Below, in pieces: positions 1,624 to 15,000 of a DNA stretch of 21,575 nt. Both the position numbers and the translations under genes were made by a program. Source of the stretch: a virus; the IMG/VR virus record IMGVR_UViG_3300030329_000108, positions 1 through 21,575 of that record; one strand, 5' to 3'. The number at the start of each line of letters is the position of its first letter. The first letter of the stretch is position 1. Under the pieces are notes generated by a model that did not search any database, had not been told where the DNA came from, and saw nothing but the letters and a program-made list of their open reading frames with translations.

Positions 1624-1865
1624 TGACTAAGAAAAAGAAAGAAGATTTAGTGAATCATCCAAAGCATTACAATCAAGGAGAGATAGAGTGTATAGATGCA
1701 ATCAGAGCTATGTTAAGTACTGAAGAATTTATTGGGTACTTACGTGGTAACTCTTTGAAGTATAGATGGAGATTTAGATATAAGAATGGTGTTCAGGACT
1801 TACTAAAAGCTGAATGGTATGATAAAAGATTAATAGAAACATTAGAAGAGAAAGGGAATGATTGA
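1623..1865 (+). CDS. DUF3310 family protein
   Basis: This 80-residue protein matches the DUF3310 pattern common in phages: VNHPKHYNQGEIECIDAI near the N-terminus, then GYLRGNSLKYRWRFRYKNG and QDLLKAEWYDKRL. Database names for this family include 'nucleotide kinase', but no P-loop is present and the biochemical role is not established. Genes of this family usually sit among phage DNA-metabolism genes, as here, directly ahead of nrdA. The start shares a base with the previous stop (TAATG), and the end overlaps the nrdA start by 8 nt (ATGATTGA), so it appears cotranslated with ribonucleotide reductase. Confidence 0.88.
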   Translation: MTKKKKEDLVNHPKHYNQGEIECIDAIRAMLSTEEFIGYLRGNSLKYRWRFRYKNGVQDLLKAEWYDKRLIETLEEKGND

Positions 1866-3753
1866 AGATAAAGTTGGCAAGAAGCCTTATTTAGGAATAG
1901 TAATAGATTATAATAAAGAAAAGAAACTGGATAAGTTTAGTTTAGATACTTTACAAGACAGATACTTTTGGGAGAATGAGACTCATGCACAAGAAGCTTT
2001 TGCAAGAGCTGCAGTATTTGCTGCAACTTATAAAGGAGAAACTGATTTTGAACTTGCTCAAAGACTTTACGAATACAGTTCTGATCTTTGGTTTATGTTT
2101 AGTACTCCTATCTTATCTAATGGTGGTACTACTCGTGGACTTCCTATCAGCTGTTTTTTAAATTATGTACCTGATAGTAGACGAGGATTGTCTGATCATT
2201 ATGACGAGAACATATGGTTAGCTAGTTCAGGTGGAGGTATTGGTGGCTATTGGGGAGAGGTTAGAAGTAATGGAGTAGCTACTAGACATGGTTCTAGGTC
2301 TACTGGATCAATACCTTTTATGCACGTAGTAGATGCAGAGATGTTAGCATTTAATCAAGGCACAACAAGACGTGGAAGTTATGCAGCTTATTCTGATATA
2401 GACCATCCAGAGATAGAAGAGTTTATTAACATGCGTAAAGAATCTGGTGGAGATATAAATAGAAAGAATTTAAATATACACAACGCAGTTAATCTAACAG
2501 ACGAATTCTTACGAGCAGTACAGGACGATGATGACTGGAGATTAATTGATCCTAAGACAGGGGAAGCTGTTAAGACTGTTAGTGCTAGAGATTTATGGTG
2601 GCAACTGTTAAATGCCAGAGCAGAAACAGGTGAGCCATACTTAATAAATATAGACAGATGTAATCAAGAGTTACGTCAAGAACAAAAGGACTTAGGTTTA
2701 GAAATTAAACAGAGTAACTTATGTTCAGAGATAGTATTACCTACGAATGAAGAACGTACTGCTGTCTGCTGTCTATCGAGTGTAAACTTAGAATACTTCG
2801 ATAAATGGAAGAAGGACGATAAGTTTATAGATGATTTAATAACTATGCTTGATAATGTGTTAGAACATTTTATCGAAGCGATTGTAGACACTTCAGGATT
2901 AGGTGGATACAATGCAAACTTTAAGAGGTTTAAAAATTATGTCAGAGAAGAAAAAGAAGGAATGGTTAAAGCAGCTTATTCTGCATATAGAGAGAGGTCG
3001 GTGGGTCTTGGAGCGATGGGCTTTCATGCTTTTCTCCAAAGCAAAGCACTACCTTTTAATGGGCTCTTCGCAACGAGTAATAACAACATTATCTTTTCAG
3101 AGATCAAGAACAAAGCTTTGGAAGCTACAAAAAGACTTGCTGATGAACGTGGCGAAGCTCCTGATATACATGGTAGTGGGCATCGTAACGCTCATCTTTT
3201 GGCTATTGCTCCTAATGCCAGTAGTAGTATTATATGTGGTGGTACTTCCCCTAGTATTGAGCCATATCGTGCTAACGTATATACGCACAAAACTTTATCC
3301 GGGAGCTACCAAGTCAGAAATAGATTTCTAGAAAAGCTACTCAAGAAGAAAGGAATTAATGTACAGGAAAGAGAAAAGATATGGAAAGATATAGCAGGGT
3401 CAGATGGTTCTGTTCAGCATTTAGATATTTTAACAGAAGAAGAAAAAGAAATATTTAAAACAGCACCTGAGATTAATCAAATCTATTTAGTAGAACACGC
3501 ACACATGAGACAACAATACGTATGTCAAAGTCAAAGTGTAAACCTTTTCTTTAATATGCCAAAAGCTACCGAGTCTCAAGAAGTACATGATGAATACTTA
3601 CAGTATGTAAATGATGTTCATTGGTATGGTGTTAATAAGTTAAAGTCTTTATATTACTTTAGATCAAATGCTGCTCGTAATGCAGAGAATGTTAATGTAA
3701 AGATTCCAAGAGTTAAATTAGAAGACATAGAATGTCTAAGTTGTGAAGGATAA
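1858..3753 (+). CDS. nrdA: Class I ribonucleoside-diphosphate reductase, large (alpha) subunit
   Basis: The enzyme reduces ribonucleoside diphosphates to deoxy forms, working with the NrdB radical subunit encoded about 370 nt downstream. All catalytic residues are visible: Cys99 (PISCFLN) and Cys304 or Cys305 as the active-site redox pair, Asn287-x-Cys289-x-Glu291 (SNLCSE), Tyr599-Tyr600 of the radical relay, and a C-terminal CxxC (Cys626, Cys629) for re-reduction. At 631 residues it is much shorter than E. coli NrdA (about 760). The N-terminus goes almost directly into the catalytic barrel, so the ATP-cone that lets dATP switch the enzyme off appears absent. That would suit a phage needing unchecked dNTP supply. 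Start ATG 1858 overlaps the DUF3310 stop, with an AAAGGG upstream. Confidence 0.97.
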   Translation: MIEDKVGKKPYLGIVIDYNKEKKLDKFSLDTLQDRYFWENETHAQEAFARAAVFAATYKGETDFELAQRLYEYSSDLWFMFSTPILSNGGTTRGLPISCFLNYVPDSRRGLSDHYDENIWLASSGGGIGGYWGEVRSNGVATRHGSRSTGSIPFMHVVDAEMLAFNQGTTRRGSYAAYSDIDHPEIEEFINMRKESGGDINRKNLNIHNAVNLTDEFLRAVQDDDDWRLIDPKTGEAVKTVSARDLWWQLLNARAETGEPYLINIDRCNQELRQEQKDLGLEIKQSNLCSEIVLPTNEERTAVCCLSSVNLEYFDKWKKDDKFIDDLITMLDNVLEHFIEAIVDTSGLGGYNANFKRFKNYVREEKEGMVKAAYSAYRERSVGLGAMGFHAFLQSKALPFNGLFATSNNNIIFSEIKNKALEATKRLADERGEAPDIHGSGHRNAHLLAIAPNASSSIICGGTSPSIEPYRANVYTHKTLSGSYQVRNRFLEKLLKKKGINVQEREKIWKDIAGSDGSVQHLDILTEEEKEIFKTAPEINQIYLVEHAHMRQQYVCQSQSVNLFFNMPKATESQEVHDEYLQYVNDVHWYGVNKLKSLYYFRSNAARNAENVNVKIPRVKLEDIECLSCEG

Positions 3754-3755
3754 TT

Positions 3756-3968
3756 ATGAGTCAAGATACAAGAAGAGAAACTAAATTTGATGCACTACAT
3801 AAAAAGTATGAAGCTGATATAGCTATAGCTAAAGCTGAATTAGATAATTACTTTGAAGTTAGTGTAGGAGTAGGAGAACATCCACATATAATAGAGGACA
3901 TGGATAAGTTACTAGACAACTTAACAAGTGCTGAAGAAAAGTTAAAAGCTTTAAGAGATCATTTCTAA
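3756..3968 (+). CDS. 70-residue helical protein between nrdA and nrdB, unknown
   Basis: I do not recognise a family. The 70-residue protein is charged and predicted helical throughout, with an N-terminal helix (RRETKFDALHKKYEADIAIAK shortened: KFDALHKKYEADIAIA), a middle GVGEHPHI turn, and a C-terminal heptad-like helix (LTSAEEKLKALRDHF). This suggests a coiled-coil hairpin. A good AAGGA Shine-Dalgarno lies in the nrdA stop region. The stop shares one base with the next ATG. Its place between the two reductase subunits, followed by a second small gene, hints at an accessory or merely hitch-hiking role; the sequence gives no direct functional clue. Confidence 0.65.
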   Translation: MSQDTRRETKFDALHKKYEADIAIAKAELDNYFEVSVGVGEHPHIIEDMDKLLDNLTSAEEKLKALRDHF

Positions 3969-4144
3969 TGGCAAATACATCTTTTAAACAGTTTTGTAGA
4001 AGGATGTGGTTAGATTATTGTGATGAAAACAATACTAGACAGAGTAAGCATTTAGAAGAAAAAGAATACACACAACTCTATTGGTTGTGGTTACTAGATA
4101 AATATGAAGAATTGAAGGAGCAAGAAAATGAGTCTGCTAAGTAA
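3968..4144 (+). CDS. 58-residue Trp/Tyr-rich protein overlapping nrdB start, unknown
   Basis: This short frame begins at ATG 3968 (sharing a base with the previous TAA) and ends at 4144, 17 nt inside nrdB. The protein is MANTSFKQFCRRMWLDYC followed by a charged, aromatic helix (TQLYWLWLLDKYEELKEQE). Two cysteines, Cys10 and Cys18, and several Trp/Tyr residues make it look like a compact folded domain rather than random translation. The nrdB Shine-Dalgarno (AAGGAG) lies within its 3' end, so the two genes are probably coupled. The family is unrecognised; small genes with similar MWLDYCDE-type sequences are, to my recollection, recurrent in marine phages. Confidence 0.65.
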   Translation: MANTSFKQFCRRMWLDYCDENNTRQSKHLEEKEYTQLYWLWLLDKYEELKEQENESAK

Positions 4145-5096
4145 TAGAGATTACTATAAACCTTTTGATCATCCTTGGATGTTTGATAAGTATGTAGAAC
4201 AAAACCAAATGCATTGGCTTCCTGAATCAGTACCACTACACACAGATGTAAAGGACTGGCAGGAACTTAGTAATGAAGAAAAGAATTTATTAACACAGAT
4301 ATTTAGATTGTTTACTCAATCAGATGTAGATGTGGGTTCAGGTTATATAGATAAGTATATGAGAATATTCAAGAAACCTGAAGCTAGAATGATGATGACA
4401 GCCTTTGCCAATATGGAATCCATACATCAACACGCATATAGTTTATTATTAGATACAGTAGGTATGCCTGAGATAGAATATAAAGCCTTTGCTGAGTATG
4501 AGGAGATGTCTAATAAACATGATTACGTAAATAGTTTTAAACCTACATTAAAAAATAAGAAAGCAATAGCTAAAACTTTAGCAGTCTATTCAGCTTTTAC
4601 AGAAGGACTACAATTATTTAGTAGCTTTGCAATCTTATTAAACTTTCCTAGATTTGGAAAGATGAAAGGTATGGGCCAGATTGTTACATACTCTATACGT
4701 GATGAGTCACTTCACGTTGAAGCTATGACACAACTGTTTAGAGAATTTATAAAAGAGAACTTGGATATATGGACAGATAAATTCAAGAAGGAACTCTATG
4801 ATATATGTAGAGAAATGGTTGAGTTAGAGGATAAGTTCCTCGACCTCGTATTTGAAATGGGAGATATGCAAGGGCTTACAAAGAAAGATATGTATGCATA
4901 CAATCGTTATATAGCTGATAGAAGATTGTTACAGTTAGGATTAAAAACTAACTTTGATCAACGAGAGAATCCTTTACCTTGGTTAGATGAAGTACTTGGT
5001 GTTGAACATCAGAACTTCTTTGAAGGTAGAGCAACTGCGTATATGAAAGCAGGACTTAGAGGTAAACAAGAAAAGATTAGCTTTACGGAGATATAA
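4128..5096 (+). CDS. nrdB: Class I ribonucleoside-diphosphate reductase, small (beta) subunit
   Basis: This 322-residue ferritin-fold subunit holds the metal-radical cofactor for NrdA. The carboxylate/histidine ligand set is complete: Asp66, Glu97 and His100 (ESIHQHAYS), Glu159 (FTEGLQLF), and Glu193 with His196 (RDESLHVEA). The radical tyrosine is present at Tyr104, seven residues after Glu97 as in E. coli NrdB (Glu115/Tyr122). This argues for a tyrosyl-radical enzyme, not a Tyr-less class Ic type. An AAGGAG Shine-Dalgarno sits 8 nt before ATG 4128. The pairing with a cone-less NrdA is consistent with a phage enzyme freed from host feedback. Length and motifs show no truncation. Confidence 0.97.
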   Translation: MSLLSNRDYYKPFDHPWMFDKYVEQNQMHWLPESVPLHTDVKDWQELSNEEKNLLTQIFRLFTQSDVDVGSGYIDKYMRIFKKPEARMMMTAFANMESIHQHAYSLLLDTVGMPEIEYKAFAEYEEMSNKHDYVNSFKPTLKNKKAIAKTLAVYSAFTEGLQLFSSFAILLNFPRFGKMKGMGQIVTYSIRDESLHVEAMTQLFREFIKENLDIWTDKFKKELYDICREMVELEDKFLDLVFEMGDMQGLTKKDMYAYNRYIADRRLLQLGLKTNFDQRENPLPWLDEVLGVEHQNFFEGRATAYMKAGLRGKQEKISFTEI

Positions 5097-5098
5097 AT

Positions 5099-5323
5099 AT
5101 GAAAGCAAAGGAAGCGAACATATTATCGTTTCGTGTCTTATTTGATACTAAAGGTAATTTAGTAACAGAAGTTGGAGGGCTTCCGTTAGAAGATGCAAAT
5201 AAAGTTTTTAAAGGTAGAGATTTAAAAATAATACAAACTGTAATTAGAGAAGGTAGACAAAGAATCCATAATATTCATAATGAATTAGAAACAGAATTAG
5301 ATGCTTTGAACTCTGCTATTTAA
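5099..5323 (+). CDS. 74-residue protein at end of left arm, unknown
   Basis: This protein starts two bases after the nrdB stop with a GGAG Shine-Dalgarno inside the nrdB end. The N-terminal half looks like a small beta unit (ILSFRVLFDTKGNLVTEVGG), and the C-terminal half is a long amphipathic helix (REGRQRIHNIHNELETEL). I recognise no family. It is the last gene of the rightward arm. Its final 8 nt overlap the 3' end of the opposite-strand cyclase gene, so the two transcripts meet tail to tail without a spacer. It is probably cotranscribed with nrdAB. Confidence 0.6.
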   Translation: MKAKEANILSFRVLFDTKGNLVTEVGGLPLEDANKVFKGRDLKIIQTVIREGRQRIHNIHNELETELDALNSAI

Positions 5324-7058
5324 TAGTATAGATTTCTAGAGGTTTAGACTTACCTTTAACTTTAATAGGTTTAAGTTCTTTAAACTTATTATTACAGTTA
5401 GACATAGTAGCTTTAGTTATAAGTAAGTCTGCTCCTGCTTCTTTACAAGCTGACTCAGTTCTAGCTCCTACATTTACAGCATCACCTATAGCTGTATAGT
5501 CAAACCTATCATCACTTCCCATATTCCCAATGATAGCATCGCCAGTATTAATCCCTATACCTATATTAACTCCTAAGTTTATATTCTTTATGTTCTGTTG
5601 AATCTCTATCGCACAATCTACAGCCTTCTGTTCGTGATTAGGTAGGTCCATAGGAGCATTAAAGATAGCCATCATTGCATCTCCTATATACTTATCTACC
5701 ATACCACCATGTTTCTTAACAGCATCAGCTTGTATAGTAAGAGCTACATTCATTATCTCAGTAACTTCTTCTGGCTCTAACTTCTCCGACATAGCTGTAA
5801 ATCCTCTTACGTCTGTAAATAAATAAGTACAACGCTTTCTTTCTCCACCTAACTTTAAAAGGTCTGGATTGTCTTGTAGTTTTTTAACCTGTCTTGGATC
5901 AAGGTAATGTTCAAATTGTTTCTTAATCTGCTGTCTCAACTTAAATTGAATTCTAAAATTTAAATAGAAGGCTGTTGCAGCTGTAACAAATTGTGATAAT
6001 AATGTCCACGTTACATCTATTAAAATTCCACGTCTAATTAAGTACATTCCTAAAATCCCTGTAGCAATCCAAATAGTACCACTAACTAAAAGTCCTAAAG
6101 TTATACCTAAATTATTTAAGAATATCCAAATACAAACAATAGATAAAGTAAATATAAACAACTCTAAAGCTTTACTGTAATCAGGTATATAAGGGCTGTC
6201 TTGTACTAAAATTGATTCAGCTAAAGCAGCTTGAATTTTATGAGGTTCAAGCAATCCAACTGGAGTACTAAGTTGTGGCATTACTCCATTAGCAGTTACT
6301 CCAACTATAACAAATTTATTCTCAACATCCATCTCTTCTAATGTAGTTTGAGGAGTATTAATCCAACTAATCCACTTTCTTCCTAATGAATCAACAGGTA
6401 CTGGAGGCAATCCTTTTACTCTTATTTCTTCTATACCATTAGGATTAGTTTTAATTACATACGTATCTGCATTAGCCATAACCTTTAATATCTGTGTGCC
6501 TACAGATGCTACCCATCCATCAGGAGTACGCATTAGTAAAGGAAGTCTTCTAACTAATCCATCGACATCTATAGGAGCAGAAGCTATACCTTGTGTTGCA
6601 CTTTGTTTAAGAATATCTATATTCTCTACAACACCTTTAGCTGTGTAACCTCCTATGTTATCACCTAATATAACTGTACCTACAGTAGGAGGATAGTTAC
6701 CATTGTCATGTTCAAACATAGAAAGAACACTAGGATGTAGTCTTAGAACCCTTGCGAAGTCTTGATCACCTCCTTGTCTATCAGGCTCTGAGAAAGAGAT
6801 AACATATCCTACCCCTAGTGCTCCAGAATTTAATATATCTAAATGTATTTCTGCCAGTCTTTGTCTTGGTAAGGGATACCCACCTTCTCTTTTTACGTCA
6901 TCTTCTGTAATATTTAATATAACAAAATGATTAGAAGGTTCTGGAGTCTTAACAAACTTGTCAAATGTTTTTAACTTCATCATCTCTAAAGGTGTGAAGT
7001 TTGATACGAAAGGTATTCCTAATATTAATAATAAACCTAGTAGTTGTAATTTCTTCAT
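5316..7058 (-). CDS. CHASE2-domain membrane adenylate cyclase (class III)
   Basis: The 580-residue protein is a complete bacterial-type sensor cyclase. An N-terminal membrane/signal anchor (about 5-20) is followed by an extracytoplasmic CHASE2 domain (about 35-290), three membrane segments (about 296-316, 318-341, 347-367), a linker, and a class III catalytic domain (about 405-580). Catalytic residues are intact: metal Asp416 (FTDVRGFT) and Asp460, substrate Lys456 (DKYIGDA) with Thr522 (YTAIG), and transition-state Asn529 and Arg533 (VNVGAR). The Lys/Thr pair is the bacterial adenylate form, so the product should be cAMP made in the host cytoplasm. Its ATG shares a base with the FecR gene stop (TAATG), so they are made together; CHASE2 cyclases and FecR-domain genes are also often neighbours in bacteria. 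A phage carrying an apparently functional one is unusual. Confidence 0.93.
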   Translation of the reverse strand: MKKLQLLGLLLILGIPFVSNFTPLEMMKLKTFDKFVKTPEPSNHFVILNITEDDVKREGGYPLPRQRLAEIHLDILNSGALGVGYVISFSEPDRQGGDQDFARVLRLHPSVLSMFEHDNGNYPPTVGTVILGDNIGGYTAKGVVENIDILKQSATQGIASAPIDVDGLVRRLPLLMRTPDGWVASVGTQILKVMANADTYVIKTNPNGIEEIRVKGLPPVPVDSLGRKWISWINTPQTTLEEMDVENKFVIVGVTANGVMPQLSTPVGLLEPHKIQAALAESILVQDSPYIPDYSKALELFIFTLSIVCIWIFLNNLGITLGLLVSGTIWIATGILGMYLIRRGILIDVTWTLLSQFVTAATAFYLNFRIQFKLRQQIKKQFEHYLDPRQVKKLQDNPDLLKLGGERKRCTYLFTDVRGFTAMSEKLEPEEVTEIMNVALTIQADAVKKHGGMVDKYIGDAMMAIFNAPMDLPNHEQKAVDCAIEIQQNIKNINLGVNIGIGINTGDAIIGNMGSDDRFDYTAIGDAVNVGARTESACKEAGADLLITKATMSNCNNKFKELKPIKVKGKSKPLEIYTIK

Positions 7059-8179
7059 TAGCCTGATCCTTGTGTAATTGTAATTGTTGAAGAGCTACCA
7101 CCATTAACTGTAATAGTTTTAGTAACTCCATCCTGTATAAATATAACTGTATAACTTCCAGAACCATCTAAGTCTAAACGTACTGATTCACTTACGCTTC
7201 TTCTTAAACTAATAGTTTGTCCTTGTATTAAGGTAGTTATCTGAGTCTCCATGTCCTGACCGATTGATGTACCTTGTACACTAATACCTGACGCATCTCT
7301 AGCCAACTCATCTTCAGCTTCAATCATATCTAATTCTGAAACTATATCTAATAAATCTTCCAAGAAGTTTACATCTAAATAGTTTATATCTAATTCTGAG
7401 AATTCTAATTCAGCCTCTGCATCTAAGAAATCTTCATTTAAATAATCTATATCTAAATCATTGAAGTCTAAAAATACATTAGATGATTGAGCTGTACCTT
7501 CTTCTTGTATAACCTGTTCCTTTTTTGGAGGAGTTACAATAAGCATATTATCTATAATGTCTAGAGTTAAATCTAATATTACAGGTTTACTTGGAGAGCT
7601 TTCAAAGACTGTTACAGTTGTAGCTTGATAAGGTTTGTTGAGCACAACAGTACTCATAGCAGTAGAGACTGTAATCTCTCCACTAGCTAAACCATTTTCA
7701 TCAGGTAATAAAATTATTAAAGACCTGCCGAGTTCATCTACAGTACAAGTGAAATCTGTACCACGTATTGCGATGCTGGCAGTTGGGGTTTGTATTGATA
7801 TGTTCTCTTTGTTAATTCTACCGAGACCACCAGTTATAAATCTAGCAGTACCACTAGCAAACGTAAGAGCCATTTTAGATTTGCTTGGATTAGGATCATA
7901 GATATATTCATCTATGACAAGTTTAGAATGTTCAGTAAGTCTGACCTTACTGTTGTCCAGAAAGGTTATAGCGAGTCTTCCAGCAGAGGTGCGAACATCA
8001 TCAAGATGTTGAACATCAAAATCAAGTTCAGCACCATAAGCCTTATCTCGTAGAACTTGTGCAGTTCCGTTTAGTTCTGTTATGTCTCCAATGTTAGCAT
8101 CCGACTGCTGTGCCATCATCGTCTTGGATGACACAAATAGTACCATTGCTACCAGTAGAAAGTATCTTGAGCCAATCAC
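7058..8179 (-). CDS. Secreted FecR-domain protein with acidic 21-residue repeats
   Basis: The 373-residue protein begins at GTG 8179 with a signal peptide (MIGSRYFLLVAMVLFVSS, cleavage near AQQ at 23-25). A FecR domain covers about 30-145, with LDDVRTSAGRLAITFLD, EYIYDP and TPTASIAIRGTDF visible. Residues 237-278 are two 21-residue acidic, Leu-rich repeats, followed by a partial third. A beta-rich, Ser/Thr/Gly tail ends the protein. It lacks the anti-sigma N-terminal domain and inner-membrane helix of true FecR regulators, so it is more likely a periplasmic or surface ligand-binding partner, plausibly of the CHASE2 cyclase it is coupled to. No Shine-Dalgarno is visible at the GTG. The first 86 nt overlap the curlin gene; an ATG at 8146 is possible but would cut into the signal peptide. 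Confidence 0.85.
   Translation of the reverse strand: MIGSRYFLLVAMVLFVSSKTMMAQQSDANIGDITELNGTAQVLRDKAYGAELDFDVQHLDDVRTSAGRLAITFLDNSKVRLTEHSKLVIDEYIYDPNPSKSKMALTFASGTARFITGGLGRINKENISIQTPTASIAIRGTDFTCTVDELGRSLIILLPDENGLASGEITVSTAMSTVVLNKPYQATTVTVFESSPSKPVILDLTLDIIDNMLIVTPPKKEQVIQEEGTAQSSNVFLDFNDLDIDYLNEDFLDAEAELEFSELDINYLDVNFLEDLLDIVSELDMIEAEDELARDASGISVQGTSIGQDMETQITTLIQGQTISLRRSVSESVRLDLDGSGSYTVIFIQDGVTKTITVNGGSSSTITITQGSG
7346..7471 (-). repeat. Two tandem 21-residue (63 bp) acidic repeats in the FecR-domain gene
   Basis: The FecR-domain protein contains LDFNDLDIDYLNEDFL... directly followed by LEFSELDINYLDVNFL..., which align over 21 residues with conserved L, F, LDI, YL and FL positions. 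A partial third copy (SELDM) follows. The DNA copies have diverged (related taattctga / atatctaaat segments), so the duplication is old or under protein-level constraint. Confidence 0.8.
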
Positions 8180-8804
8180 GTGCTAATAAACTCTGTTGTT
8201 GTATATTAAATGTTCTGTCGTTACCTGTATGATCTAGATAGAAATACCCATTAGCATAACCATCAGCATCAAACGTAACAGTATTAGAATCACCATCTAC
8301 GTCAACGTAGTTAGTCGCTGAATCATAATCTATATCAAAATCAAATTCGTTACTGTCACCTTGAATTATCCAGTCTAAGTCTAGCGTACTTGCCATTGCA
8401 GATGTACCTACATTAAGTGTAAAATCATTACTACTTCCAGTTACATCTACATTAAAGTTACCACTATCAGCACCATATGTATCAGTAGGATCAACTTGAA
8501 TATTAAATACGTTAGAGTCTCCATCAAATTCAAAGAAGCCTGTAAACGTATTAGCTAATATATCACCTAAGAATTTGTTAGAACTTCCTATTTGATTAAT
8601 ATCTAATGTCATAGTATTTCCATCCAAATCTAAGGCAGTTAAATCACCTGCAGTAGAGTCCGTTCCTCCTATTATGTTGCCTGAACCTAGCTGTTCTAAA
8701 TCAAGATTAGCAGTAGCACCAGATTGATCTACATATATTTCATTATCTGCAGCGTAAACTGATCCAACTAACAATACTAAACATAATGTTAAAAATTTAT
8801 TCAT
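8094..8804 (-). CDS. Curlin-repeat secreted protein (CsgA/CsgB-like)
   Basis: From ATG 8804 the protein is 236 residues with a clear signal peptide (MNKFLTLCLVLLVGSVYA). The mature part has repeated curlin-type units: VDQSGATANLDLEQLGSGN, LDINQIGSSNKFLG, VTGSSNDFTLNV, IQGDSNEFDFDI, VDGDSNTVTF and LDHTGNDRTFNIQQQ. The recurring G-x-(S)N and Q/D-x-G spacing matches curlin repeats, which form amyloid beta-helices. It is Asp-rich with fewer Gln than E. coli CsgA. The tail ends with Cys...Cys (TICVIQ...AVGC). It lies directly after csgG, overlapping by 8 nt (ATGAATAA), so it is the probable export substrate. A TTG at 8825 would extend the frame, but it adds residues before a perfect signal peptide. 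Confidence 0.8.
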   Translation of the reverse strand: MNKFLTLCLVLLVGSVYAADNEIYVDQSGATANLDLEQLGSGNIIGGTDSTAGDLTALDLDGNTMTLDINQIGSSNKFLGDILANTFTGFFEFDGDSNVFNIQVDPTDTYGADSGNFNVDVTGSSNDFTLNVGTSAMASTLDLDWIIQGDSNEFDFDIDYDSATNYVDVDGDSNTVTFDADGYANGYFYLDHTGNDRTFNIQQQSLLARDWLKILSTGSNGTICVIQDDDGTAVGC

Positions 8805-9597
8805 AAGTCCAATAGTTCCTCCCAAAACCTATTTGAATCATTTTTAAAACAGCTTCTTCTATTGCCTTTTGCAAAGCTATAGAAGCACTTTCGTTTTCTG
8901 CGACACCTCCCTCGATTTCAACAAGCTCTGTGCCCATCTCGATGAAACGAAAAACATCTTGCGAGACTCCAACAGATAGAAGTGTCTTAGCAGTTGTTAC
9001 TTCTATTAACACTTCACCTGTTGATACAGATATTAAACGTAGTGAGACTGTGACAGTATCTTCTCTGTATTGTTTGCTACTGCCTATACCTAAGTATCTT
9101 GCTCCTAGTCCACCACTTCTAAGGTTAGTATCATATGCTGTGACACCACCTTGGACCAATAGCCCTGCAAACAGTAAGGGCTTTAGGTCTTTGTTCTCTT
9201 CAAATTTCTCTCTAGTACTTCTTATTAATTGTCTTTCTTTCGTAAGATTATCTAAACCAATACGTTCTACTACTTGAAAGAACTCACCATTTCCTGCGTG
9301 CTTCAAAGCTCTTATTAAGAAAGCATCAGGTGCTTGTGATATTGCAGTACTAAACAATGCAAACTGACTGTTACTTTTTCTCTGTCCTGTTAAGTCTGAA
9401 AAACCATTAGGATATACAGCTATAGTAGGCCTTCTTATTGGAGGCTCAATGTTCTTTAATTCTTCTGACTGTAGTTCTAATATCTGAGTAGTTTGAATAC
9501 TAATAACAGGTATACCACCTCTTGTTAGTAACTCATCATATTTTACTGCACAGCTAGAAAGTGAAATCGCCAATAGGCAAAGTAATAGTCGTGACAT
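8797..9597 (-). CDS. csgG: CsgG-like curli secretion pore lipoprotein
   Basis: The product is a CsgG-family outer-membrane lipoprotein that assembles into the pore for curli subunits. Starting at ATG 9597 it reads MSRLLLCLLAISLSSC, a classic lipoprotein signal with the lipobox cysteine at 16. ATGs at 9603 and 9609 are also in frame with no better Shine-Dalgarno. Family features include RRPTIAVYPNGFSDLTGQR, a central ERIGLDNLTKERQLIRSTR, a glycine-rich transmembrane-loop region (FAGLLVQGGVTAYDTN, GGLGARYLG), and TVSLRLISVSTGEVL. At 266 residues it matches CsgG length. It overlaps csgF upstream by about 44 nt and the curlin gene downstream by 8 nt, giving the order csgF-csgG-curlin on one transcript. 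Confidence 0.92.
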   Translation of the reverse strand: MSRLLLCLLAISLSSCAVKYDELLTRGGIPVISIQTTQILELQSEELKNIEPPIRRPTIAVYPNGFSDLTGQRKSNSQFALFSTAISQAPDAFLIRALKHAGNGEFFQVVERIGLDNLTKERQLIRSTREKFEENKDLKPLLFAGLLVQGGVTAYDTNLRSGGLGARYLGIGSSKQYREDTVTVSLRLISVSTGEVLIEVTTAKTLLSVGVSQDVFRFIEMGTELVEIEGGVAENESASIALQKAIEEAVLKMIQIGFGRNYWTYE

Positions 9598-10015
9598 TCC
9601 CATCTTCATCTGTAATCTTTAGAGTTATCATACCATCGACAACCCAATACTCAATTATATTTCCTAATAATTCTAATATACCTTCTGTCTTAGGATTTTC
9701 ACCAAACAAGTTCTCTACTAATTGTCTAGATAACTGAGCATAGATACGAGATTCAAGATTCCTAATGAACCTTGCAAGTGTTGTATTATTTTCCTCTCTT
9801 TCTGCAGCTTCTTTAAGGGCTTTGATCTCTGCCTTTAATGCTTCCTTACGATTGAACTCTTGGTTCTCTATAGTAAGGTAATGTGAACTGGTGTTGTTAC
9901 CACTAAAGGAAGGATTCTTAAACTTATGTACTATCTCATCTGCGTTTATATTAAGTGCAAAAATACTTAGTACCATGACTAAGCTTATTATCCATATCCA
10001 TTTAGTACTATCCAT
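9554..10015 (-). CDS. csgF: CsgF-like curli assembly factor
   Basis: CsgF binds the CsgG pore at the cell surface and helps nucleate curli. This 153-residue protein has a signal peptide (about 1-25, WIISLVMVLSIFALNINA) and then the family hallmark HKFKNPSFSGN, equivalent to the FRNPNFGGN segment that plugs CsgG. A long charged helix follows (RKEALKAEIKALKEAAERE), and a C-terminal beta unit (WVVDGMITLKITDEDGN). Length is close to the usual 138. Its ATG shares a base with the previous stop (TAATG) and has GGAAAG upstream. The long helix is more charged than in enterobacterial CsgF. No csgE or csgC is visible in this window. Confidence 0.87.
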   Translation of the reverse strand: MDSTKWIWIISLVMVLSIFALNINADEIVHKFKNPSFSGNNTSSHYLTIENQEFNRKEALKAEIKALKEAAEREENNTTLARFIRNLESRIYAQLSRQLVENLFGENPKTEGILELLGNIIEYWVVDGMITLKITDEDGNVTTITLPIGDFTF

Positions 10016-10365
10016 TAATCTTTCCTCTGGTCATCTCTGTCTGCTTTTGCTACTTTATCTATCTCTATTAGATTTGGTACACCTAATAAAGTTTTTAAAA
10101 GTATGTCCTGCCTGATTGTTTGATTATCAACTGCTCTAATCCTATCTATTAAAGCAACAATCATCCCATGTTGTGCGTCTAACTTAGAAGTTATTCTTTC
10201 TTCCATAGCATCTTGTTTAGCATTTATTGAAGCATCAGTTGCATCTATCTTCTGTTCAATAGTTCCCATTATCTTTGACAGCAATTGCCAAAGTAACCAC
10301 CCTAGTCCTAAAAGTCCTGCTACTGGAACACCAACCTCATTGATTAATGTTATCACACTATCCAT
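10015..10365 (-). CDS. Single-pass membrane protein with coiled coil, unknown
   Basis: The 116-residue protein has one membrane segment (about 11-33, VGVPVAGLLGLGWLLWQLL) near the N-terminus with no cleavable signal. A long helical, heptad-rich domain follows (about 35-105: EQKIDATDASINAKQDAMEE, RIRAVDNQTIRQ). This layout resembles XhlA/BhlA-type holin accessories and YvrJ-like small phage proteins, but I cannot assign it. It sits directly before csgF with a one-base overlap and starts inside the end of the 65-residue gene, so it is part of the curli unit's transcript. It could act as a membrane scaffold for the curli pore or in lysis; the sequence does not decide. Confidence 0.7.
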   Translation of the reverse strand: MDSVITLINEVGVPVAGLLGLGWLLWQLLSKIMGTIEQKIDATDASINAKQDAMEERITSKLDAQHGMIVALIDRIRAVDNQTIRQDILLKTLLGVPNLIEIDKVAKADRDDQRKD

Positions 10366-10555
10366 TAAACTTTAAGTCCTCCCACCTTTTAAAGGATTTA
10401 GTATCAGAATCCCAAAACCAACCTTCGTAATGACTGGATTTTTTAGGTTCTTCTTCCTTTTGATCTTGATACCAGTTCCAACGACCATTATGAATGCTTT
10501 CCATATTAGTAATAATATCTTTAATTGTTTTCTCTTTACCTTTTTTTGGGTGCAT
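10358..10555 (-). CDS. 65-residue Trp-rich soluble protein, unknown
   Basis: This small protein has a Lys-rich start (MHPKKGKEKTIKDIITNMES) and a Trp/Tyr/acidic body (HNGRWNWYQDQKEEEPK, HYEGWFWDSDTKSFKRWEDL). Repeated W-x-W and WFWD features suggest a compact aromatic fold or a peptide-binding patch. There is no signal or membrane segment. I recognise no family. It ends with an 8-nt overlap onto the next gene (ATGGATAG), typical of this operon. An AGGA lies only 3 nt before the ATG, which is close for a Shine-Dalgarno; an internal ATG at codon 18 is an alternative start. Confidence 0.6.
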   Translation of the reverse strand: MHPKKGKEKTIKDIITNMESIHNGRWNWYQDQKEEEPKKSSHYEGWFWDSDTKSFKRWEDLKFNG

Positions 10556-10587
10556 TAATCCTACACTTCTCTATCGTGATTTCAAAA

Positions 10588-10737
10588 TTATGTAAAGTCT
10601 GCAATTATATCAATTATAAGGTAAACAAAAAGAATGTGCATAATGAGCCTATGCCTACGAGTACGGCTAAGTCCGTATCTCTTCTCCTCTTTATCTTCCT
10701 CAATCTCCTCTTGCGTATTGTACCATCGTCCAGCCAT
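10588..10737 (-). CDS. 49-residue small membrane protein, unknown
   Basis: Reading leftward from ATG 10737 gives MAGRWYNTQEEIEEDKEEKR, a middle RTRRHR stretch, and a C-terminal hydrophobic segment (LIMHILFVYLIIDIIADFT). This suggests an acidic soluble head anchored in the membrane by its C-terminus, with positive residues before the segment. No Shine-Dalgarno is obvious. A second frame on the same strand (10754 to 10614, 46 residues, MKSVPLWLDDGTIRKRR...) also ends in a hydrophobic stretch and starts right at the hsp20 stop (TAGATG). By A/T-rich third positions and less extreme composition I prefer the 49-residue frame. Whether one or both are made is open. Confidence 0.5.
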   Translation of the reverse strand: MAGRWYNTQEEIEEDKEEKRYGLSRTRRHRLIMHILFVYLIIDIIADFT

Positions 10738-10754
10738 AAGGGAACTGATTTCAT

Positions 10755-11183
10755 CTAAGTTTCAATCTTAATTTGTTTAGGCTTCTTCTCTTCTGGAATA
10801 AACCTAGTTAAGTTAATACGTAGAAGACCATTCCTCAAGGTTGCACCAACGACTTCAATGTCATCAGCCAACTTAAATTGTCGTCTGAAAGAGCGTTGGG
10901 CAATTCCCTTAAAGAGTTTGCCTTCCTCCTTTGTTTCAGACGATTCGTGCATTATTGTTAAAGTTCTTTCCTGTACTTCAACTTCTATGTCGTTATCGTC
11001 TAGCCCTGCGAGAGCCATTTCGATAGTGTAGTTCTCTCCATCTCTACTTACGTTTGTAGGTGGATATGTCGGTACTGATATTTCAGTAGCCTTAGATAAA
11101 CTGTCAAACAATCTATCAAATCCAACGAACATAGATGTAAATGAGGGTGAATAAAAGTCCACCAAGTTATTCTTAATAACCAT
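10755..11183 (-). CDS. hsp20: Small heat-shock protein, Hsp20/IbpA family
   Basis: The 142-residue protein is an ATP-independent chaperone that holds unfolding proteins. Its alpha-crystallin domain spans about 40-132, with PPTNVSRDGENYTIEMALAG at the start, RSFRRQFKLADDIEV in the middle and the signature NGLLRINL near the end. The C-terminal tail carries an I-x-I motif (IKI) used for oligomer assembly. N-terminal FDRLFDSL matches IbpA-type proteins. Marine T4-like phages also carry hsp20, often as a virion-assembly helper. The ATG has a strong AAGGAG, but the leader can fold over it (see the hairpin at 11181-11214). Here it heads the run of genes leading into the curli and cyclase genes. Confidence 0.95.
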   Translation of the reverse strand: MVIKNNLVDFYSPSFTSMFVGFDRLFDSLSKATEISVPTYPPTNVSRDGENYTIEMALAGLDDNDIEVEVQERTLTIMHESSETKEEGKLFKGIAQRSFRRQFKLADDIEVVGATLRNGLLRINLTRFIPEEKKPKQIKIET

Positions 11184-11214
11184 AATTTTTCTCCTTATTA
11201 TTAAGCAAGTTATG
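11181..11214 (-). promoter_or_regulatory. Candidate ROSE-like RNA thermometer hairpin over hsp20 Shine-Dalgarno and start
   Basis: In the hsp20 mRNA, CAUAA (11214-11210) can pair with UUAUG (11185-11181, containing the AUG). Inside it, UUGCU (11208-11204) can pair with AGGAG of the Shine-Dalgarno (11195-11191) as U-G, U-A, G-G, C-G, U-A around an 8-nt loop UAAUAAUA. UUGCU opposite the Shine-Dalgarno with a G-G mismatch is the hallmark of ROSE thermometers in alphaproteobacterial small heat-shock genes. This pairing is read directly; temperature response is inference. The outer stem is AU-rich and separated by a 1x5 internal loop, so it should be weak. Confidence 0.5.
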
Positions 11215-11219
11215 TATAC

Positions 11220-11250
11220 CTCTTAGACGCTCATAGAGCCATTCTAAGAG
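11220..11250 (-). other. Hairpin in hsp20 leader
   Basis: CTCTTAGA and TCTAAGAG form a perfect 8-bp inverted repeat, with an inner GCTC/GAGC that can add a 4-bp stem-loop (loop TAT). It lies just 5' of the thermometer-like hairpin on the hsp20 transcript. ROSE leaders typically have such preceding stem-loops. It has no following T run, so it is not a terminator. Confidence 0.6.
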
Positions 11251-11256
11251 AGTTTT

Positions 11257-11292
11257 TAATTACTAGATATATCGAACTCTATCTAGTAATTA
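11257..11292. repeat. 13-bp perfect inverted repeat between the 37-residue gene and hsp20
   Basis: TAATTACTAGATA (11257-11269) and TATCTAGTAATTA (11280-11292) are perfect reverse complements with a 10-nt spacer. The element can be a transcript hairpin in the hsp20 leader or a DNA operator for a dimeric regulator. On the minus strand it is followed by AAAAA rather than a T run, so it is not an intrinsic terminator for the virion genes. Confidence 0.7.
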
Positions 11293-11296
11293 TCGA

Positions 11297-11325
11297 GTCT
11301 TAAATAGACTCTATTTAGACTTTTT
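11297..11325 (+). terminator. Weak candidate intrinsic terminator facing rightward
   Basis: On the + strand GTCTTAAATA and TATTTAGAC can pair (one bulged T, 5-nt loop GACTC), immediately followed by TTTTT. Stem GC content is low. All genes here run leftward, so it could only stop antisense read-through from the left arm; a function is doubtful. An alternative fold uses GAGTCT/AGACTC (11295-11311). Confidence 0.3.
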
Positions 11326-11424
11326 AATTAAGCCTAAAATCTTCTCAAACCACTCTGGTTTTTTTCTGTAGATAACATATCCTACGATACCAGCAATGAT
11401 TATAAATCCTATTAAATTTTCCAT
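11311..11424 (-). CDS. 37-residue small membrane peptide next to holin
   Basis: From ATG 11424 the peptide reads MENLIGFIIIAGIVGYVIYR then KKPEWFEKILGLIKKSK. It has one N-terminal membrane helix and a basic amphipathic tail, typical of small phage holin- or antiholin-like peptides. The Shine-Dalgarno AGGAG is at ideal distance and lies in the last codons of the holin gene upstream; the gap is two bases. This placement supports a lysis role by association. It is the last gene before the hsp20 leader. The family cannot be named from so short a sequence. Confidence 0.65.
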   Translation of the reverse strand: MENLIGFIIIAGIVGYVIYRKKPEWFEKILGLIKKSK

Positions 11425-11426
11425 TA

Positions 11427-11903
11427 TTACTCCTGTTTATGTGAAGCTCCAAAATAGAAGCTGATTACAGCCGAGGCTAATCCACCTAGATAACCAAGCA
11501 CTAAGTTTATTAGAGCTTCGCTGTTCTGTTCTGGTGGTTGTAGAGTAACTAAAAAGATATACCCTAAAAAACCACCTAATGTAGCTACGCCCATAATACG
11601 TGCTGTCCAGTCTTTACTGAATCTTCCTCTAGCATCTTGCGTGTCAGCTACTTCTAATTTAAATACGTCTACTTCAAGCTCTTTCATCTTTAACTCAAAG
11701 TCTTGTTCAGCTTTTTTCAGCTGTAACATCTGTTCAGGTGTAGCATTCTGTACAGCTTTCTCAATAGCCTTTGGTGTATTAGGAACTCCCAATACATCTG
11801 CTATCATATTAGCTGCCATTCCTCCCATAGGCCCACCTAATGCAGAGCCTAATGTAGGAGCTACTGCACCTACGACATTCTTTAATATTCCACCTAGTTT
11901 CAT
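11427..11903 (-). CDS. Holin, 3TM gene-transfer-release type
   Basis: This 158-residue protein looks like the GTA_holin_3TM family, which permeabilises the inner membrane for lysis and particle release. Visible are a glycine-rich N-terminal segment (PTLGSALGGPMGGMAANMIA), a helical charged centre (QNATPEQMLQLKKAEQDFEL, DTQDARGRFSKDW), and two C-terminal membrane spans (about 105-122 MGVATLGGFLGYIFLVTL and 130-152 ALINLVLGYLGGLASAVISF). Its ATG overlaps the preceding small gene's stop (ATGA) and has AAGGAAG upstream. Position just after the ejection proteins and just before a small membrane peptide fits a lysis module. No separate endolysin gene is in this window; the muralytic domain is on the 1420-residue protein. 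Confidence 0.82.
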   Translation of the reverse strand: MKLGGILKNVVGAVAPTLGSALGGPMGGMAANMIADVLGVPNTPKAIEKAVQNATPEQMLQLKKAEQDFELKMKELEVDVFKLEVADTQDARGRFSKDWTARIMGVATLGGFLGYIFLVTLQPPEQNSEALINLVLGYLGGLASAVISFYFGASHKQE

Positions 11904-12049
11904 TCTTCTTCCTTATAAACTTCTTTCATTAAATCTTCAAACATCAATCTGAAATCTTCTAATTTTATAAAAGCTGTATTATGCTTAATTTGGTTTAAGC
12001 AGTATTGTCTGTAACACCTTTCTAATAGTTCTTCTGTGTACAATACCAT
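11900..12049 (-). CDS. 49-residue helical protein, unknown
   Basis: The frame from ATG 12049 encodes MVLYTEELLERCYRQYCLNQ, then a helical acidic end (KLEDFRLMFEDLMKEVYKEEE). It fills the space between the 1420-residue gene and the holin, and its TGA overlaps the holin ATG by four bases, so it is likely coupled to holin translation. The two cysteines (12 and 17) and conserved-looking aromatic spacing suggest a real short folded protein. There is no membrane segment. Similar short proteins near lysis genes are, to my recollection, seen in pelagiphage-like genomes; function unknown. Confidence 0.65.
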   Translation of the reverse strand: MVLYTEELLERCYRQYCLNQIKHNTAFIKLEDFRLMFEDLMKEVYKEEE

Positions 12050-12063
12050 TATAGTGCCTGTTA

Positions 12064-15000
12064 TTAATTTGTCAAGTTTATTCCATTAAATTGACCATAC
12101 CTTCCTGTTTTTTGTCTATAGTTAAAAGCATCTTGAACTGCATAACTAGTTAAAGTATCATCAAGTTTATAGTTATCTCCTTCAAACCCTGTTTTAGCTA
12201 TAACAAAATTTTTCATAATTGTAGGGTCTTCAAAATTTAATTTATCGTTAACTCCTACTCCCATTCTATTAGCAATATAGTTTTTAAAATTAGGATTATT
12301 AGGATTTTCTTCATCCATATGTTCAAATTCTTTTAGATCACCTTTAGCAGGAGATAAAACATCTACCATATCACTAATACTAACAGCCCTTCTACCTCCT
12401 AAAGCGTCTTGGGGTTTAATATATTTTGAGTGGACATTTAAAACTCCTGCCCTTGTACCATCAAATAAAGTTGGAAATTGCTCAAAAGTAGAATCAGTAT
12501 TGTTTTCATCTGATAATTTATTATTCCATTTAGTTTTACTTTTAACAATATTTAATGGGTTTCTGTTTAAAATATTTCTTTTCTTTTCATAATAGTTAGG
12601 GTTTTCTTTTATATCTCTAGTTAAATTATTTTCTATTTCGTCTAAAGCCCTTTTAACTATGTTACCTTCTTTTTTACCTTCACTTCCTCCATCATTATAT
12701 TGCTTACGTACTGCACCACCATTGTAGTACAAAGCAGTATAAGGCTCGCCAGTAAAAGGATTAATTCTTTCTTCTGGTTTTTCTTTAGCATTTGGTACTT
12801 CTACTTCTAACCCTTCTGCGTATTGCCTTCTTTTTCTTTTTCTTTTACCAGAACTTTTAGGCTTATCTTTAATATCATAAATCTCTATAGGTTGTATAGG
12901 GAAATCGCCTGATAATAAATGTTTAATATCTTTTCCAAAAGGTGCAACATCCATTGTGTCTGATAACGCACCTTCAAAGTCTCCTTGATATAAATTTGAG
13001 GTAACATTAGGAACTAATTTTATTAAATCATTTGTTAATGCCAATGAAGGTATTGCTCCTCCTAAACCTTCACTAGAACCCGGACCAGAAATAAGACTAA
13101 GTAGTTTTTCTGCTTGGAAAGGCATTACGTTACCTGATAATTTCATAGCTTCTAACGCATATTTAGCTGACCATCGTTCAGGAACATTAGACTCATCTTT
13201 ATAATACTCAGAAGGACTAAAAGCAATCTGCATTTCTCTTACGCCTCCGTATATACTTATAGCAGCTAACATTCTTAAAGCTAAAGCAGCATCACCATCT
13301 TCAATTCTACTTATTAAAGCATTTGTTTGTGTTGTTTTAGCTTGTGCCCATGATAAGAACTGTCCTAATGATCTGACCAATGGATTATTAGATTGTGCAA
13401 AAAGCAATCTATTACCTACAGTTGGTATAATCGCATCTCTTTCCGAAGAGTTAAATCCTGCTTTATGTAAAAATTGTTTAGTCTCTACATTATCATATGC
13501 TTCTCTTGCATTTTTAAATTTAGATATTTTTAGTAGTTCATCTTTTTTTAATCCTAAAGCATTGATTTCATTTTGTAAACTTCGTGATATTTTTTTACCC
13601 TTACCAACTCGTTTAGCTATATCATAAGCTCTAAATATTCCTGCATCATAAGCTGCTCCTCTTGCAAAATCAGTAATTCTTTTTAACTGTACAACCCTAA
13701 AAAACCAGTCATTATAATCACTTATAAATCTACCTGTTTTATTTGAGGGGTCTACTCCAAATCCTATAGCTTTTAACTCACTTTCTAAAACATTTTGATA
13801 TTTAATACCTAAACCCTCAGCCGAAAATGTATCTTGCTTTCCTCCTAAAAGTTTACCTGCTTTTGCTTTTGCTGCATATGTTTTTATAACAGGCATAAAC
13901 CCACTATTCTGTAAAGGTTGTATTAAGTCTCCAATACTAGGTATAGATACACGAGTTAGCATAGTACTATTAGCTAATGATACCAACCCTGCCATCATTA
14001 CATGACCAGTCTCGTTACTTAATCTATTTCCATACAAACCAAAGTAAGCATTAACACTATCTTTAATATGTTGTATTTCTTTCTGCTCTAACTTTGCTGG
14101 AGTTCTTTTAACTGTTCGTAATGGATAGTATTTCTTTTTTATTTCTTGTTCTATAGTTTTAAGTAGTTCTCCTTTAGGTCCAAAAGTTTTAGCAAACTCA
14201 TAACTAGGTAGTGTCTGTTTAACTAAATGAGCCAATGTTTGACTAGGATCATTTATAATATAATCTTGTAACATTACACGAGCATTTTGATCTGTGATTA
14301 CACGACCTTTTTCAAAGTTTTTTAACAAAGGTATAACAACATTACCTGACTCATCAAATGCAGTTGTGGCTCTTGTTCCTGTTAAACCTAACATTACATC
14401 AGCGACTTTATTATCAAAAGCCTCGCCACCTTCCTCAATAGCTTTTCTTATAGCATCTGTATCTGTTGGGTCTAATTTATATGTTTGAACAGCCCATGCT
14501 TCTTTTAATCTATAGCCGAACAAATCTGAATTTTTAGCAATTTTATCCCAATCCCACATTTGGGTAAGACCATAATTTTCTAAAAGTTTAAAATCTATAC
14601 CTACTTCAGATACAGCCCCTCCTAACTCATCTGTAAAATCTTTAATCTTTTGTGAAGCTTGTTGAATTATTGTCAGTTCTTCAGGATTATATTTCTTTGC
14701 TAGATCATCTAGTGTTGTAAAACCATTTCTAAATTTACCAACATCTTCTAACATTTCTCTAGGTACATCTCTTAAAACATCTTTATGTATAATATTAAAT
14801 AACTTACCTGCATTTGATAGTGCCCTTTGCTCAACGGGCATAGCACCTACAGTTGTTAAAGAAGCTCCCATCTGTTTATACATAAGCTTACTAAACAAAG
14901 ATGATGCTCCTCCCCATGCATTTAAACGTGCAGCATGTGTGCCTGCTGTATTTATTTTAAGCCATGTACGAATAGTTAACCTAGCTTCTTGATCTAGTGT

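What the first reader, a model, noticed from the sequence alone, without database searches (positions are those of the whole stretch)
5316..7058. Phage-encoded adenylate cyclase with complete catalytic residues
Metal Asp416/Asp460, Lys456/Thr522 and Asn529/Arg533 are all present, and the CHASE2 plus three-helix layout is intact. This argues for active cAMP production on infection, triggered or tuned by an extracytoplasmic signal. Phages altering host cAMP with their own membrane cyclase are rarely described.
Basis: partly seen in the sequence, partly recalled or inferred. Interest (0 to 1): 0.85.

Follow-up and report, generated by a model that had tools for sequence, protein, structure and literature searches.

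The report
Phage curli-linked membrane adenylate cyclase
A marine phage carries an apparently working membrane sensor enzyme for making cAMP, as the last gene of an already reported phage curli-secretion cluster; the surprise is that the bacteria such phages are known to infect seem to have no cAMP system of their own for it to talk to.

Summary
ORF 5316-7058 (minus strand, 580 aa) is a CHASE2, three-helix, class III cyclase protein with every named residue in place. AlphaFold2 gives pLDDT 93, and the cyclase superposes on CyaC and CyaB (Z about 26). Metal Asp416/Asp460, Lys456 and Arg533 are kept wherever covered in 242 viral relatives; dN/dS is 0.05-0.15. The gene ends a module CsgF-CsgG-curlin-FecR-cyclase.

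It is not new as a phage gene: HTVC008M carries one annotated as a cyclase, and Wittmers 2022 (PMC9599517) described the module. Added here: (1) it is a CHASE2 receptor cyclase, so the FecR neighbour is better read as its extracytoplasmic partner than as an iron regulator; (2) the window is an HTVC103P-like phage; (3) 97 genomes of the SAR11 order show no class III or class I adenylate cyclase and no CRP-like receptor (6 of 97 have only weak cNMP domains; the one read is fused to an acyltransferase), and none of 50 phage records has a cNMP domain. So 'altering host cAMP' lacks a known receptor. Activity, signal and effector are untested.

The parts
5316..7058 (-). CHASE2-class III adenylate cyclase, 580 aa
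   Evidence: ORF; Pfam; model
6144..7010 (-). CHASE2 sensor domain, residues 17-305 (preceded by the first membrane helix, about residues 2-24)
   Evidence: Pfam; model; hydropathy
5913..6179 (-). three membrane helices after CHASE2, residues about 294-382
   Evidence: model helices 295-316, 319-342, 350-382; hydropathy shows the first two clearly, the third not above the threshold
5838..5948 (-). signalling helix/linker between membrane and cyclase, residues 371-407, most conserved segment in the window's group (mean pairwise identity 0.85)
5322..5837 (-). class III cyclase catalytic domain, residues 408-579
   Evidence: Pfam; PDB chains
5811..5813 (-). Asp416, first metal-binding Asp
5691..5693 (-). 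Lys456, purine-specificity Lys (Glu at this place in the guanylyl cyclase Cya2 chain 2w01)
   Evidence: alignments printed
5679..5681 (-). Asp460, second metal-binding Asp
5493..5495 (-). Thr522, second purine-specificity residue (Thr also in the photoactivated adenylyl cyclase 5x4t)
5472..5474 (-). Asn529, transition-state Asn
5460..5462 (-). Arg533, transition-state Arg
7058..8179 (-). FecR-domain protein, 373 aa, FecR domain at residues 60-149, signal-peptide-like N-terminus (by eye), no other Pfam domain
8094..8825 (-). curlin-like repeat protein, 243 aa
   Evidence: no Pfam match at 0.01; NCBIfam CsgB weakly, E 0.0053; position matches the gene annotated as curlin minor subunit CsgB in HTVC008M
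8797..9609 (-). CsgG outer-membrane curli pore
   Evidence: Pfam E 7.4e-52
9554..10015 (-). CsgF
   Evidence: Pfam E 6.3e-20
10015..10365 (-). 116-aa protein with one hydrophobic segment and a coiled-coil-like tail (by eye), first gene of the module
   Evidence: no Pfam match below E 0.1, no NCBIfam match; homologues precede CsgF in many loci

Best explanation
The gene encodes a homodimeric receptor-type class III adenylate cyclase. Its CHASE2 domain sits outside the inner membrane; the state of the phage-made curli export system is reported to it, most likely by the FecR-domain protein encoded next to it; this changes the geometry of the conserved signalling helix and switches ATP-to-cAMP conversion in the cytoplasm of the infected cell. 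Shown here: fold prediction, complete active site, selection, fixed place in the module. Inferred: homodimer, ATP as substrate, FecR as partner, envelope signal. Unknown: the cAMP effector. In the SAR11 order it is apparently not a CRP-type regulator, so either a non-canonical receptor is used or the phages that need the output infect other hosts.
For: Catalytic residues and fold. Lys456/Thr522 agree with adenylate rather than guanylate cyclases: wild-type guanylyl cyclase Cya2 (2w01) has Glu where 6fht and the phage have Lys. dN/dS 0.05-0.15 for cyclase and CHASE2 alike, so sensor and enzyme are both under selection; linker very conserved. FecR lies within 3.5 kb upstream of the cyclase in 41 of 42, 31 of 33 and 47 of 60 loci with enough sequence, in the window-like, HTVC008M-like and Melnitz-like sets, and CsgF, CsgG, curlin and FecR are all present in 26 of 26 window-like loci with 6 kb upstream. 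In bacteria FecR lies within 1.5 kb of a CHASE2 cyclase in 15 of 80 loci, against 4 of 80 with one beyond 3 kb. Published precedents: CHASE2 cyclases clustered with a FecR-domain outer-membrane protein in Campylobacterota (PMC9239204, passage); CHASE2 histidine kinase with LysM-FecR protein (PMC5192318, passages); S. meliloti CyaD1 without CHASE2 makes cAMP constitutively (PMC5498481, figure legend passage).
Against: No assay. No direct evidence that FecR binds CHASE2; co-location in the phage could be shared regulation only. No cAMP receptor was found in host order or phages. 65 of 80 bacterial relatives have no FecR within 1.5 kb by my phage-built profile, though flanks and profile sensitivity are limiting. 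L077 has the cyclase turned round, with HSP20 between it and FecR.
Confidence: 0.6

Rival explanations
1. The cyclase raises cAMP to re-programme host transcription through a host CRP-like regulator.
For: 141 of 190 sampled genomes of the class of G001 have a cNMP-binding domain, as do 79 of 80 genomes of the family of a Methylotenera MAG (Methylophilaceae; OM43, host of Melnitz, is recalled as a member), including small genomes of 1.2-1.4 Mb. The window's own host is not known; HTVC103P-related group IV MAVGs have unknown hosts (PMC8528129, passage).
Against: In the SAR11 order, to which the hosts of HTVC008M and HTVC103P belong, PF00027 matched in 6 of 97 genomes only, at about 28 bits; the one of the six that I read is an ORF that also has an acyltransferase domain.
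Confidence: 0.2
2. The cyclase is part of a lysis or release checkpoint: the CsgG pore acts in lysis, and the cyclase senses envelope state to time it (extension of the Melnitz pore proposal).
For: Buchholz and colleagues propose a gated pore role in lysis (PMC9004378, passages). A 158-aa gene with hydrophobic C-terminal segments adjoins the module in many window-like loci.
Against: That gene has no significant Pfam match, so calling it a holin is recall only. A curlin-type gene is kept in 26 of 26 testable window-like loci, which a bare pore would not need.
Confidence: 0.12
3. It is a Pycsar-like pyrimidine cyclase making cCMP or cUMP, used for defence against other phages.
For: PADLOC PycC models match the cyclase domain, best E 1.7e-28.
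Against: These models share the whole class III superfamily; the Lys/Thr pair and the sequence matches are those of adenylate cyclases; CHASE2 is present; no cNMP-binding effector was found in any of 50 phage records or in the window proteins scanned.
Confidence: 0.05
4. A passenger gene carried along with curli genes, without function.
For: Reported as not always present in curli regions (PMC9599517, passage).
Against: Strong purifying selection on sensor and enzyme; invariant metal, Lys and Arg residues.
Confidence: 0.03

Closest known systems
Adenylate cyclase of the pelagiphage T8SS (curli) module: HTVC008M AGE60353.1, Melnitz QZI94833.1, HTVC023P-type envCVGs of Wittmers 2022 (PMC9599517)
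   Same: Same module order CsgF-CsgG-curlin-FecR-(second curlin)-cyclase, same cyclase family; 32.5% and 31.1% identity
   Different: The window has no second curlin between FecR and cyclase; it lies in an HTVC103P-like phage beside nrdA/nrdB; the main text of Wittmers has no occurrence of 'CHASE' or 'catalytic'
Bacterial CHASE2 receptor adenylate cyclases, e.g. S. meliloti CyaD1, Campylobacterota CHASE2-cyclase/FecR clusters
   Same: Same architecture; FecR-domain neighbour in the Campylobacterota clusters and in 15 of 80 relatives fetched here
   Different: No CsgG/CsgF near any of 80 bacterial relatives by my profiles; 25-38% identity to the window
CyaC, CyaB and OaPAC/bPAC cyclase domains (PDB 1wc1, 3r5g, 8qfi, 5mbb)
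   Same: Catalytic fold, metal and Lys residues; Z 24-26, rmsd 1.4-3.6
   Different: Other sensor domains; 28-37% identity

Membership tests
Class III adenylate cyclase | Cyclase fold | tested here: met
   Predicted model: Z 26.0 to 1wc1, 176 residues, rmsd 1.5; Z 25.8 to 3r5g
Class III adenylate cyclase | Two metal Asp, purine Lys plus Thr/Ser/Asp, Asn and Arg | tested here: met
   All present in the window
Class III adenylate cyclase | Makes cAMP from ATP | not testable with these tools
   Needs an assay; Lys456 argues for ATP
CHASE2 receptor cyclase | Helix-CHASE2-three helices-output domain | tested here: met
   Pfam, model
FecR/CHASE2 signalling pair | FecR-domain protein encoded next to the CHASE2 protein | tested here: met
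   7058-8179 adjoins 5316-7058; FecR within 3.5 kb in 41 of 42 window-like loci
FecR/CHASE2 signalling pair | Physical or functional coupling | not testable with these tools
   No complex prediction or assay available
Pelagiphage T8SS module (Wittmers 2022) | CsgF, CsgG, curlin, FecR and cyclase in conserved order | tested here: met
   curlin identity rests on weak similarity and position
Pelagiphage T8SS module (Wittmers 2022) | Histidine kinase before CsgF | tested here: not met
   The gene before CsgF is 116 aa with no kinase match
Host cAMP-CRP circuit (SAR11 order) | CRP-like cNMP-binding regulator in host | tested here: not met
   PF00027 in 6 of 97 genomes, all near 28 bits; the one of the six read is an acyltransferase-type ORF
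Host cAMP-CRP circuit (SAR11 order) | Host's own adenylate cyclase | tested here: not met
   Class III 0 of 97, class I 0 of 97; other classes not tested
Pycsar | Cyclic-nucleotide-binding effector beside the cyclase | tested here: not met
   PF00027 in 0 of 50 phage records; none in window proteins scanned

The most novel reading that the evidence does not exclude
A phage imports an entire cAMP branch into a bacterial lineage that has neither adenylate cyclase nor CRP-type receptor: a sensor cyclase coupled to phage-made curli export, whose product acts through a receptor of an unrecognised kind (phage or host encoded), or is itself exported as an extracellular signal.
Probability: 0.3. Interest if true: 0.75.

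Novelty: new member of a known kind. Interest (0 to 1): 0.5.

Why it matters
A common group of ocean phages keeps an intact receptor cyclase beside its own secretion genes, in phages whose cultured hosts belong to an order in which I found no cAMP machinery. That makes a sharp question: who reads the cAMP? It also changes the reading of the neighbouring FecR gene from iron regulation to envelope signalling. Both are directly testable with HTVC008M on HTCC1062.

Tried and rejected
Structure with 12 rows gave pLDDT 59.7 and was not used; the 100-row alignment gave 93.2. Solved matches to the CHASE2 part: none listed, but the list was filled by the cyclase domain, so this says nothing. Megablast of the window in phage records: no match. 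The 763-aa protein has no phage relative by tblastn. The two 'Acinetobacter phage MD-2021a' cyclase hits were dropped as phage evidence: the one opened is a bacterial stretch (mfd, iscS, hscA). A consensus promoter at 12075-12048 minus (12 of 12) has no counterpart of 11 of 12 or better upstream of the module in 35 other loci, and region 4900-12100 holds fewer promoter-like sites than its shuffles do. Universal stress proteins as an alternative cAMP receptor: present in 50 of 97 SAR11-order genomes, no evidence for or against binding. Tree (quick method, 45 viral and 55 bacterial rows): the viral cyclases fall together with one MAG sequence, L246, at 99 SH-aLRT; window-like and myophage sequences form separate clades, so it does not itself show the nesting inside myophages that Wittmers report. 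A paper search for CHASE2, adenylate cyclase and FecR together found two papers. A search for four phrases such as 'phage-encoded adenylate cyclase' found none, but it also misses PMC9599517, so it shows little.

Counting notes: the window-like set of 82 rows holds the window twice (itself and L081) plus 80 loci; the HTVC008M set of 81 holds HTVC008M twice (L082, L085). Set names follow the query that fetched the loci, not a taxonomic test. One window-like sequence has a gap at Arg533, one HTVC008M-like and one Melnitz-like sequence have gaps at some of the positions; they were left out of the residue counts there. The 100-row alignment, tree and model used 44 of 242 viral and 55 of 80 bacterial loci. 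dN/dS used within-set pairs of 85-98.5% identity; the membrane part fell under the length limit.

Full report
Observation. The ORF at 5316-7058 lies on the minus strand and is 580 aa long. Pfam finds CHASE2 (17-305) and the class III cyclase domain (408-579), both above the curated cut-off. The Lys456 stretch matches DKF in the engineered adenylate cyclase chain 6fht, where the guanylyl cyclase Cya2 chain 2w01 has DEF (alignments; that 6fht carries the Cya2 cyclase with converted specificity is recalled). AlphaFold2 with 100 aligned sequences gives mean pLDDT 93.2, no residue under 70, one helix, the CHASE2 part, three helices and the cyclase. VIA-align puts the cyclase on CyaC 1wc1 (Z 26.0, 176 residues, rmsd 1.5) and CyaB 3r5g (Z 25.8, 175 residues, rmsd 1.4, 37% identity).

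Neighbourhood. All on the minus strand, upstream of the cyclase: FecR-domain protein 7058-8179, curlin-like protein 8094-8825, CsgG 8797-9609, CsgF 9554-10015 and a 116-aa protein 10015-10365. The genes overlap or abut, which suggests one operon. Converging on it are nrdA and nrdB on the plus strand. The FecR protein has a signal-like start by eye and only the FecR domain, so it looks like an extracytoplasmic protein; its weak NCBIfam matches are surface proteins (Lsa33, LipL45).

Which phage. The window is an IMG/VR record of 21,575 bases, G+C 33.4%. Megablast finds no near phage. The 1420-aa protein matches HTVC103P, HTVC104P and HTVC115P, all phages of SAR11 strain HTCC7211. Seven window ORFs match HTVC103P (exonuclease 43%, Hsp20 42%, 1420-aa protein 27% and others), and sister contigs carrying the same module have a DNA polymerase 50-52% identical to that of HTVC103P. 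In HTVC103P the same stretch shows Hsp20 but no curli or ribonucleotide reductase genes in its annotation. So this is an HTVC103P-like phage, a type other than the HTVC023P-type of Wittmers (PMC9599517, section 6 read). Relatives of this kind have partly unknown hosts (PMC8528129, passages), so SAR11 as the window's host is likely, not proven.

Relatives. Asp416, Lys456, Asp460 and Arg533 are present wherever covered. Position 522 is Thr or Ser in the window-like set (60 and 20 of 80 loci, the window not counted), Ser in the HTVC008M-like set and Asp in 79 of 80 covered Melnitz-like sequences; Asn529 is Ser in 79 of 80 covered Melnitz-like sequences too. Selection is purifying on both halves. 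The signalling helix is the most conserved part within the window-like and HTVC008M-like sets; in the Melnitz-like set it equals the cyclase (0.754 against 0.756).

The FecR link. FecR sits within 3.5 kb upstream of the cyclase in 41 of 42, 31 of 33 and 47 of 60 testable viral loci, and somewhere in the locus in 42 of 42, 32 of 33 and 60 of 60. In 80 bacterial relatives a FecR protein lies within 1.5 kb in 15, and CsgG, CsgF or curlin in none. The literature passages I read give FecR-domain proteins beside CHASE2 cyclases in Campylobacterota (PMC9239204) and beside CHASE2 kinases in Burkholderia and Pseudomonas (PMC5192318). CyaD1 without CHASE2 makes cAMP constitutively (PMC5498481). I therefore read FecR and the cyclase as one imported sensor pair attached to the curli genes, not as an iron regulator plus a separate enzyme. 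This is inference; no binding was tested.

The host problem. In 97 genomes of that order: class III cyclase 0, class I cyclase 0, cNMP-binding domain 6, all near 28 bits. The one I read of those six has two such domains fused to an acyltransferase, with no DNA-binding domain found. CsgG matches in 1 of 97, weakly. Positive controls: the same cNMP search finds 141 of 190 in the class sample and 79 of 80 in the family of a Methylotenera MAG, small genomes included. In 50 phage records, among them the full HTVC008M genome, no cNMP domain was found. Completeness of the genomes is not told, and receptors of other kinds (GAF, universal stress proteins, PII-like; recalled) were not excluded; universal stress proteins occur in 50 of 97.

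What is known. HTVC008M's gene is annotated 'adenylate/guanylyl cyclase' in its record. Zaragoza-Solas 2020 (PMC7029224, passages) described the curli genes; Buchholz 2022 (PMC9004378, passages) proposed a lysis role for the pore; Wittmers 2022 (PMC9599517, abstract, passages and section 6) described the full module with FecR, 'histidine kinase' and adenylate cyclase, its spread and its proposed alphaproteobacterial origin, and noted that Pelagibacter lacks T8SS genes. That main text holds no occurrence of CHASE or 'catalytic', and in the passages I saw it does not raise the missing cAMP receptor. In this window the gene before CsgF is not a recognisable histidine kinase.

Verdict. The enzyme is real and very probably active; as a phage gene it is already on record, so this is a new member, in another phage type, of a known kind. 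The open and interesting part is the missing receptor in the SAR11 order, which turns a likely 'phage raises host cAMP' story into a puzzle that can be tested with phages in culture.

Noticed in passing
L082:7583-8908: HTVC008M second curlin-type protein (annotated hypothetical) has a PA14 domain plus curlin repeats, as if a sugar-binding tip were displayed on the fibre.
   Followed up: no
window 10015-10365: The gene before CsgF, the position where Wittmers report a histidine kinase, is only 116 aa (one hydrophobic segment and a coiled-coil-like tail) and has no kinase match.
   Followed up: partly
L083:8929-10980 and relatives: Melnitz-like phage cyclases have Asp at the Thr522 place and Ser in place of Asn529 in 79 of 80 covered sequences, a lineage-wide change at a catalytic position.
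   Followed up: partly
window 1858-5096: nrdA and nrdB lie next to the cyclase here and in six fetched contigs (L001, L003, L041, L056, L059, L077); they are not named in the HTVC103P stretch shown.
   Followed up: partly
window 12048-12075: Perfect 12 of 12 sigma-70 consensus site on the minus strand just upstream of the 158-aa gene, HSP20 and the curli module; no counterpart in 35 other loci.
   Followed up: yes
L246:3-7718: MAG 'Rickettsiales MED657' contig: the nearest bacterial-labelled CHASE2 cyclase stands beside HlyD, OEP and a cadherin-domain protein, again a sensor cyclase beside a surface-protein exporter.
   Followed up: partly
L077:3889-9761: In this contig the cyclase is turned round and HSP20 lies between it and FecR.
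   Followed up: no
L084: 'Acinetobacter phage MD-2021a' record in the phage collection is a bacterial chromosome stretch (mfd, iscS, hscA).
   Followed up: yes
OR851715.1: A 1,499-base 'Salmonella phage' record without annotation holds a CsgG-like stretch (39% identity); probably bacterial csg DNA.
   Followed up: no
L331:919-3264: Six of 97 SAR11-order genomes have a weak cNMP-domain match in a large ORF; the one read has two such domains and an acyltransferase.
   Followed up: partly
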